Translations under genes and position numbers: made by a program | The notes under the pieces: model-generated | The model's input: only the letters and a program-made list of their open reading frames with translations | Told to the model about the DNA's origin: nothing | Database searches by the model: none | NCBI GenBank assembly: GCA_949283255.1 | Contig: CASDRS010000003.1 | Span: 62,001-126,000 of the forward strand | Reading direction: 5' to 3' | DNA length: 64,000 nucleotides | Source: an uncultured bacterium | Lineage (GTDB): Bacteria; Cyanobacteriota; Vampirovibrionia; Gastranaerophilales; Gastranaerophilaceae | Part shown: one piece after another, positions 53,566 to 60,210 of the stretch | How positions within the stretch are numbered: position 1 is the first letter of the stretch | Layout: each line of letters starts with the position of its first letter

Positions 53566-53724
53566 ATGAAAACATTGATTAAAGCTACAAGTCCGAAGAA
53601 AATTAAATCGAAATTTAATGACGAGTTTGAGAAGTACTTAAAAAAACAATGCATGAAAACAACCTTTAACGGTTTGGAATTAGAGACATTTACTTGGTAC
53701 AAAAAAGTACTTGGTTTAACATAG
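53566..53724 (+). CDS. 52-residue basic microprotein, unknown
   Basis: MKTLIKATSPKKIKSKFNDE followed by a helical, Lys-rich segment and ending VLGLT. AAAGGGG lies 6 nt before the ATG, and a strong terminator begins 3 nt after the stop, so this is a self-contained expressed unit. Net positive charge could suit nucleic-acid or membrane binding; no family recognised. It borders the candidate origin. Confidence 0.7.
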   Translation: MKTLIKATSPKKIKSKFNDEFEKYLKKQCMKTTFNGLELETFTWYKKVLGLT

Positions 53725-53758: not shown

Positions 53759-53789
53759 CGCCAAAAATAGAGTTCTCTTTTTCTTCAAA

Positions 53790-54031
53790 GTTTTCTTTTT
53801 ATTTTATTTATTATTTATAATATATATTTAATAAAAGAAAATAATCATCATAATAAGCTGTACAAATTTGTAGAAAACCTTGAAAACTATTGTTATATAA
53901 GGTTTTACAATTTTAAAAATTTGTAGAAAACTTTTATAAATTTCTACAAAAAAGAATGTAAAAAACTCCTCAAAAAATAAACCTGTAGAAAACTCATGAA
54001 TTTTCTACAAAAAACACACAAGTTTTCTACA
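53790..54031. other. oriC: candidate chromosomal replication origin: AT-rich stretch plus TTTTCTACA repeats
   Basis: The gap lies between two converging genes, so it needs no promoter. Positions 53790-53860 are almost pure A/T, a possible unwinding element. Five perfect TTTTCTACA 9-mers follow, at 53869-53877, 53922-53930 and 53984-53992 (inverted) and 54001-54009 and 54023-54031 (direct), plus an 8/9 copy at 53940-53948. The 9-mer is one base from the cyanobacterial DnaA box TTTTCCACA. Two copy pairs form inverted repeats. Genes from about 54.4 kb on are all rightward, and dnaN and recA are within 6 kb. Function is inference. Confidence 0.5.
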
Positions 54032-54049
54032 GAAAGAAAAGGAGTTTAA

Positions 54050-54280
54050 CTATGCCATATTGATTCGGGGTCTTCCGACCATATTTATCAAAATATCTAT
54101 AACTCTTGGCATTTGACATTTAAAAGAATAATTTCCGTTCGAAAGTGAGCATTTTTTACAGTCACATCCGATTGAATAACACTCAAGAGCTTGTTCAGTC
54201 CAACTTTGTGTAATTGAAGAAGAAATATCTCCTTCTATATTTTGAGAATAGTTATTATTTTTTTTAGAAACATTGACCAT
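54050..54280 (-). CDS. 76-residue Cys-rich protein, possible zinc binder
   Basis: The C-terminal half carries CYSIGCDCKKCSLSNGNY, then KCQMPRVIDILI and GRPRI. Several Cys spaced C-x4-C-x-C-x2-C plus a later Cys suggest a zinc or Fe-S site. The N-terminus is Asn/Ser-rich and disordered. AGGGGA about 8 nt upstream of the ATG supports it. I believe similar small proteins occur in other gut anaerobes, but this is from memory. Function unknown. Confidence 0.72.
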   Translation of the reverse strand: MVNVSKKNNNYSQNIEGDISSSITQSWTEQALECYSIGCDCKKCSLSNGNYSFKCQMPRVIDILINMVGRPRINMA

Positions 54281-59079: not shown

Positions 59080-60210
59080 ATGAAGATTGTCGTAAAAAAA
59101 GAGGATTTATATAACGGTATAAAAATAGTAGAAAAAGCTGCAGGGCAAAAAACTGTATTGCCAATCTTAGCAAATATTTTGATAGAAACAATAAACCAAA
59201 ATTCAATAAGATTAGTTGCACAAGATATGGAAATGGCAATATCAACTATAGTAGATGCTCAAGTTGAAGAAGAAGGTAAAATAACATTACCTTCAAAAAC
59301 CTTGAATGATATTGTTTCAAAATTGAGTAATAAACTTATTACTATAGAATTTAACGAATCAGAGGGTGCTGATTCTACAGTAGTAAACATAACTTGTCAG
59401 AATTCAAAGTTTGATTTGGTTGGTATATCAGCTGCAGAATTTCCTTCAATGAATAAAGTTGCGGCAGAACAACAAGAAACAGGTCTTGATATCGAAATAA
59501 AACCATTTTTAAAAGGAGTAAAGCAGGCAGGTTTTGCGGTATCATCAGCTGATTTGTATAGAATATTCTCAGGTGTTGTTTGTAAAATATCAGGTCAAAC
59601 CTTGGAGATAGCTTCTACAGACGGAAACAGACTTGCAAGAGTAAGAGAATCAATACAAAATCAAGAAAATTCAGACTTACAATTGGTAATACCATCAAAA
59701 GTTTTAAATGAATTTATAAGAATAAGTTCATATATAGAAGATGAATCTGTAAAATTAACAGTTGCCGGAAAACAGATTATATTGAATACATCAAAAATTT
59801 CAATGGTAGCTCAATTATTGGAAGGTAAATATCCTGATTACAATGTGTTGATTCCGCAAGATTGTCAGAAAAATGCGACAGTGAATGTTGCTGAGATGGA
59901 AACAGCTCTGGATCGTGTATCAACATTGGTTAACGAAAAGACAAGTATCGTAAAACTAGAGTTTACGGAAAATAATCTAAAGCTTACTGCAGATACTCCA
60001 AATATGGGTAAATCCGAAGAAACAATGGCAATAGATTATACCGGAGAAGATATTACAATAGCATTTAATTATAAATATATATTGGATGTATTGAGACATA
60101 TAGAAAGTGAAGAAGTAAAGATAGGATTGAATACAAACCTTTCTGCGTCTGTATTTAGACCAAATACAGATGAAGACTTTGTATGTCTTGTAATGCCTGT
60201 TCGTTATTAA
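59080..60210 (+). CDS. dnaN: DNA polymerase III beta sliding clamp
   Basis: 376 residues, three topologically similar domains. KTVLPILANILIETI, the ASTDGNRLARV loop, GKYPDYNVLIPQ and the C-terminal FVCLVMPVRY (clamp-loader contact P-M-R) are canonical. GGGGAGTAGGA precedes the ATG. It stands alone with a terminator, without dnaA or recF beside it, as in Cyanobacteria where dnaN is often near the origin. Confidence 0.98.
   Translation: MKIVVKKEDLYNGIKIVEKAAGQKTVLPILANILIETINQNSIRLVAQDMEMAISTIVDAQVEEEGKITLPSKTLNDIVSKLSNKLITIEFNESEGADSTVVNITCQNSKFDLVGISAAEFPSMNKVAAEQQETGLDIEIKPFLKGVKQAGFAVSSADLYRIFSGVVCKISGQTLEIASTDGNRLARVRESIQNQENSDLQLVIPSKVLNEFIRISSYIEDESVKLTVAGKQIILNTSKISMVAQLLEGKYPDYNVLIPQDCQKNATVNVAEMETALDRVSTLVNEKTSIVKLEFTENNLKLTADTPNMGKSEETMAIDYTGEDITIAFNYKYILDVLRHIESEEVKIGLNTNLSASVFRPNTDEDFVCLVMPVRY

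What the first reader, a model, noticed from the sequence alone, without database searches (positions are those of the whole stretch)
53760..54048. Candidate replication origin made of TTTTCTACA repeats beside a pure A/T stretch
Five perfect and one near-perfect copies of a 9-mer lie in 163 bp, where about one or two are expected by chance in the whole 64 kb at 35% GC (three chance-like perfect copies occur inside the kinase and methyltransferase genes). The region lies between convergent genes, so promoter or operator roles are unlikely. The 9-mer is one base from the cyanobacterial DnaA box TTTTCCACA, copies form inverted pairs with 8- and 11-nt spacers, and a 70-nt AT-rich block flanks them. 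dnaN and recA are nearby, as dnaN is near oriC in several Cyanobacteria.
Basis: partly seen in the sequence, partly recalled or inferred. Interest (0 to 1): 0.8.

Follow-up and report, generated by a model that had tools for sequence, protein, structure and literature searches.

The report
Replication origin with altered DnaA boxes
This stretch is almost certainly where this gut relative of Cyanobacteria starts copying its chromosome, and its order marks that start with a DnaA-binding word (TTTTCTACA) that has lost a base conserved in most other bacteria.

Summary
In detail: five exact TTTTCTACA (plus one ATTTCTACA) lie in 163 bp, the only 9-mer with five or more copies in 200 bp in the window, beside the window's lowest-GC 60-mer. 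(1) Strand-corrected GC3 skew flips from negative to positive at the array in the window's contig and in five of six relatives' contigs (best split 0.6-10 kb from the array, within 1.1 kb on a 739-kb contig); at dnaA, on another contig, it does not flip. (2) The array recurs at one site per genome in 97 of 383 genomes of the order, reversed control 0, and among 84,980 species in essentially this order only. (3) Elsewhere in the order it lies about 80-400 bp before dnaN; in the window's genus dnaN is 5 kb away. (4) The box nearest the AT-rich block is followed after 12 nt by a trinucleotide repeat, as in DnaA-trio unwinding modules. The organism belongs to Candidatus Gastranaerophilales. New here: box position 6 is T or A instead of the usual C across most of the order, subclades use other boxes, and DnaA's recognition residues (433, 423, 435) differ. 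Binding is untested.

The parts
53796..53836 (.). Pure A/T core of the putative DNA unwinding element (DUE); wider block about 53770-53841
   Evidence: Longest A/T run, lowest-GC 60-mer of the window; AT-rich at this place in the relatives aligned
53842..53856 (-). Trinucleotide repeat TTA-TTA-TGA-TGA-TTA (minus strand 5'-3'), 12 nt from box 1; DnaA-trio-like
   Evidence: Same register in 9 of 9 genus members; TTA/CTA repeats in 29 of 49 dnaN-adjacent loci of the order against 1.0 in shuffles
53869..53877 (-). DnaA box 1 TTTTCTACA, DUE-proximal, pointing at the repeat and DUE
53922..53930 (-). DnaA box 2 TTTTCTACA
   Evidence: Offset 52-54 from box 1 in 9 of 10 genus members
53940..53948 (+). 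Imperfect copy ATTTCTACA, not conserved; weak site or chance
53984..53992 (-). DnaA box 3 TTTTCTACA, left half of an inverted pair with an 8-nt spacer
54001..54009 (+). DnaA box 4 TTTTCTACA, right half of the inverted pair (26-bp near-perfect palindrome)
54023..54031 (+). DnaA box 5 TTTTCTACA
53566..53724 (+). 52-aa conserved small gene bordering the origin on the left
   Evidence: 81-96% identity in 6 relatives of the genus; no Pfam match
54050..54280 (-). 76-aa conserved Cys-rich small gene bordering the origin on the right, convergent with the former
   Evidence: 67-81% identity in 9 relatives of the genus; no Pfam match
59080..60210 (+). dnaN (sliding clamp), about 5 kb from the array here, directly adjacent to it in most other genera
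   Evidence: Pfam DNA_pol3_beta domains; order-wide synteny

Best explanation
This is the chromosomal origin oriC (core about 53770-54031). DnaA binds the TTTTCTACA boxes through a domain IV with altered recognition residues. From box 1, which points at the AT-rich block, an ATP-DnaA filament extends over a 12-nt spacer onto the trinucleotide repeat (53842-53856) and melts the A/T block (53796-53836); helicase is loaded and two forks leave. Boxes 2-5 build the initiation complex. Shown here: the array, its conservation, its place beside dnaN across the order, and the change of replication strand asymmetry at it. Inferred: DnaA binding, site of melting, role of single boxes.
For: Only such cluster in the window and genome. 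One array site per genome in 97 of 383 genomes of the order, reversed control 0; 104 stretches among 84,980 species, essentially all this order. Next to dnaN in most genera, as in 55 of 68 Cyanobacteria (PMC4674748). Strand-corrected GC3 skew switches negative to positive at the array: own contig t=13.1, G046 best split 315.0 kb against array 313.95 kb on 739 kb (t=23.8), G137 151.0 against 148.2, G049 85.0 against 85.6, G012 114.0 against 112.0, G067 135.0 against 144.6 kb. dnaA contig: no switch. Conserved box spacing. Trio-like repeat 12 nt after box 1 in 9 of 9 genus members; TTA/CTA form in 29 of 49 dnaN loci against 1.0 in shuffles; published box-to-trio spacer peak 10-13 bp (PMC8287927).
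Against: Raw cumulative GC skew on this contig has its minimum 62 kb away, and on G046 at 490 kb. One contig, G120, is uninformative. Only 16 kb of this contig lie to the right of the array. The genome is a draft, so the terminus was not placed. g26 genomes sampled show no such array at dnaN. No DnaA binding or replication experiment exists.
Confidence: 0.95

Rival explanations
1. Operator array: the repeats bind a transcription factor controlling neighbouring genes.
For: Repeated inverted 9-mers with a near-palindromic pair resemble operators in general.
Against: The array lies between two convergent genes' 3' ends here. Flanking genes differ between genera while the array persists. It coincides with a replication-strand switch.
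Confidence: 0.02
2. DnaA-titration or regulatory cluster (datA/DARS-like) near, but not at, the origin.
For: DnaA boxes occur at such loci as well (general knowledge).
Against: It is the only cluster in the genome, adjoins the lowest-GC block, carries a trio-like repeat, and the skew switch maps to within about 1-5 kb of it in five of seven contigs.
Confidence: 0.02
3. Replication terminus or chromosome-segregation (parS/dif-like) site.
For: A strand-asymmetry switch also occurs at termini (general knowledge).
Against: The switch is negative to positive along the + strand, the origin sense, and genes pointing away from the site have the higher GC3 skew. Box number and spacing vary between genera.
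Confidence: 0.01

Closest known systems
Cyanobacterial oriC (Synechococcus elongatus PCC 7942, Anabaena PCC 7120, Cyanothece ATCC 51142), boxes TTTTCCACA next to dnaN (PMC4674748)
   Same: Box cluster plus AT-rich stretch upstream of dnaN; box differs by one base
   Different: Position 6 is T instead of C; in the window's genus the array is 5 kb from dnaN; a trinucleotide repeat adjoins the DUE-proximal box (not compared in Cyanobacteria here)
Basal unwinding system (BUS: DnaA box, short spacer, DnaA-trio 3'-GAT-5', AT-rich region) of Bacillus subtilis and others (PMC8287927, PMC6669920)
   Same: Box pointing at a trinucleotide repeat after a 12-nt spacer, then A/T-rich DNA; deeper families of the order have CTACTACTA, whose complement is the canonical GAT trio
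   Different: The window's genus has TTA/TGA units instead of CTA; unwinding untested
Epsilonproteobacterial origins with altered core 5'-TTCAC-3' and changed DnaA helix-turn-helix (PMC5043019)
   Same: A whole lineage has shifted its DnaA-box core together with changes in DnaA domain IV
   Different: There position 5 becomes T and CAC is kept; here position 6 (C in the E. coli consensus TTWTNCACA) becomes T or A, and residues 433, 423 and 435 differ

Membership tests
Bacterial chromosomal oriC | Cluster of DnaA-box 9-mers in a non-coding region | tested here: met
   5 exact and 1 near copy in 163 bp between two genes; lineage-specific box
Bacterial chromosomal oriC | Adjacent AT-rich unwinding element | tested here: met
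   41-nt pure A/T run, lowest-GC 60-mer of the window
Bacterial chromosomal oriC | Strand compositional asymmetry switches negative to positive here | tested here: met
   Strand-corrected GC3 skew in own contig and 5 of 6 relatives; one uninformative
Bacterial chromosomal oriC | One conserved site per chromosome, near replication genes | tested here: met
   Single site per genome; dnaN-adjacent in most genera
Bacterial chromosomal oriC | DnaA binding and initiation of replication | not testable with these tools
   Needs footprinting or marker-frequency data
Cyanobacterial-type oriC (TTTTCCACA at dnaN) | Box TTTTCCACA | tested here: not met
   No TTTTCCACA at the array; TTTTCTACA instead
Cyanobacterial-type oriC (TTTTCCACA at dnaN) | Directly beside dnaN | tested here: not met
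   5 kb away in the window's genus; met in most other genera of the order
Canonical DnaA box TTWTNCACA | C at position 6 | tested here: not met
   T at position 6 in all five boxes
BUS / DnaA-trio module | DnaA box then at least 3 NAN trinucleotides in register within 16 bp | tested here: met
   12-nt spacer and TTA/TGA units in the same register in 9 of 9 genus members; units diverge from 3'-GAT-5'
BUS / DnaA-trio module | DnaA-dependent strand opening at the repeat | not testable with these tools
   Needs an unwinding assay

The most novel reading that the evidence does not exclude
In Gastranaerophilales the near-universal DnaA-box code has been rewritten: the C at position 6 was lost across most of the order (TTTTCTACA and kin), and subclades moved on to other codes (TTTTGAACA, TTTTGCACA, TTTTAAACA), co-evolving with DnaA residues 433 (D to K, or N), 423 (P to E) and 435 (T to P). 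The order would be a natural series for how an essential initiator and its site change specificity together.
Probability: 0.6. Interest if true: 0.62.

Novelty: new variant of a known kind. Interest (0 to 1): 0.5.

Why it matters
It locates the replication origin for a large, uncultured gut order related to Cyanobacteria. That allows growth-rate estimates from read coverage and correct genome orientation. It also exposes a lineage in which the DnaA-box core, usually fixed, has changed and then diversified with changes in DnaA's DNA-contact residues, so initiator-site co-evolution can be tested directly.

Tried and rejected
Raw cumulative GC skew was ambiguous, probably because rearrangements and gene-strand effects mask it; the gene-strand-corrected model resolved it. 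The idea that T435P or P423E causes the box change was rejected as the sole cause: families with P423 and T435 also use TTTTCTACA. K433 against N433 separates the CT/GA/AT boxes from the AA/GC/AC boxes (35 K/R genomes with the first class, 10 N/T genomes with the second, one K exception), but this is a single change on the DnaN tree, so it is not independent evidence. In one search the two small ORFs were queried in wrong frames; one search repeats this correctly. No paper in the library was found that gives an oriC for this order or the word TTTTCTACA as a DnaA box; only open-licence papers are held.

Full report
Observation. Five exact TTTTCTACA copies lie at 53869(-), 53922(-), 53984(-), 54001(+) and 54023(+), plus ATTTCTACA at 53940(+). 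It is the only 9-mer in the window with five copies in 200 bp, and sequences generated from the region's own dinucleotides never gave more than two. Across the 1.82-Mb, 22-contig genome the word is no commoner than its reversed control (89 against 92), and no other cluster exists. The adjoining block holds the lowest-GC 60-mer of the window.

Organism. Named records with this array are overwhelmingly Candidatus Gastranaerophilales (Melainabacteria); contig lengths tie G006, of the window's genus, to such a record.

Conservation. A pattern of one reverse and two forward boxes is found in 97 of 383 genomes of the order, at one site each, with none for the reversed control. Among 84,980 species it gives 104 stretches, nearly all from this order; one, Dictyobacter, looks like chance. 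In ten genus members the boxes keep their positions (about 0, 53, 115-124, 132-141, 154-163) while the DNA between them diverges.

Position. In most other genera the array starts about 300 bp from the start of dnaN; recA is also close in some. Cyanobacterial origins likewise adjoin dnaN with boxes TTTTCCACA (PMC4674748). In the window's genome a U32 peptidase gene, a MerR-like gene, recA and one further gene lie between array and dnaN.

Replication asymmetry. For each gene I took GC skew at third codon positions, fitted a gene-strand effect and a left/right effect, and scanned the split point. The left/right effect is strong at the array: window contig t=13.1 (best split 121.0 kb, array 115.95 kb), G046 t=23.8 (315.0 against 313.95 kb, on 739 kb), G137 t=17.1 (151.0 against 148.2), G049 t=7.6 (85.0 against 85.6), G012 t=6.5 (114.0 against 112.0), G067 t=5.8 (135.0 against 144.6). 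G120 is uninformative. At dnaA, on contig C8, strand-corrected skew is positive on both sides. The sense of the switch is that of an origin, not a terminus. Raw skew alone is noisy, in line with the low GC-skew index of 0.32 for a single-contig Melainabacteria genome (PMC8863827).

Mechanism. Box 1 points at the A/T block. After 12 nt comes TTA-TTA-TGA-TGA-TTA, then A/T DNA. All nine genus members tested have TTA/TGA units in that register, and 29 of 49 dnaN-adjacent loci have TTA/CTA units there against 1.0 in shuffles; deeper families carry CTACTACTA, the complement of the canonical 3'-GAT-5' DnaA-trio. The published box-to-trio spacer peaks at 10-13 bp (PMC8287927). A DnaA filament starting at box 1 and opening the A/T block is therefore the likeliest route (inference).

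Altered box code. E. coli's consensus is TTWTNCACA, and deviation from TTATNCACA lowers affinity (PMC5043019). Here position 6 is T. Families f2-f4 use TTTTCTACA with TTTTATACA and TTTTGAACA; g5 and g43 use TTTTGAACA, g5 together with TTTTCTACA; g2, g29, g30, g34 and g38 use TTTTAAACA, TTTTGCACA or TTTTACACA. DnaA residues that contact bases in E. coli (399, 423, 432-435, 438-439; PMC5043019) also differ: R399 is nearly always kept, 433 is K or R (N or T in the last group), 423 is E in a large clade that includes the window, and 435 is P in the window's genus and some others. The class at residue 433 matches the box class, but as one change on the tree; co-evolution is suggested, not shown.

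Verdict. An origin of a known kind, with strong computational support, a lineage-specific box and a genus-specific separation from dnaN. Binding and initiation remain untested.

Noticed in passing
window 48671, 49829, 51447, 53145: Four single TTTTCTACA copies within 6 kb left of the array against 0.64 expected for 12 kb; none in G012, G120 or G049, so possibly chance.
   Followed up: partly
window 53566-53724 (+) and 54050-54280 (-): Two conserved small genes (52 aa; 76 aa and Cys-rich) flank the origin in the genus; neither has a Pfam match. Relatives of the 76-aa protein also lie on array-bearing stretches of other genera (L115, L162, L133).
   Followed up: partly
loci L058-L066 (g26 genomes): g26 genomes sampled lack a box array at dnaN; some carry TTTTCTACA arrays mixed with TTATGAACA-like words elsewhere, in some near recA.
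   Followed up: no
window 53984-54009 and many loci: The inverted box pair forms a 26-bp near-palindrome, in many genomes exactly TGTAGAAAACTCATGAGTTTTCTACA; the CTCATGAG spacer recurs in several genera, more conserved than a spacer need be.
   Followed up: no
L015 (G000:C8, dnaA): DnaA domain IV has KKHPTM where E. coli has RDHTTV; T435 to P recurs in several genera.
   Followed up: partly
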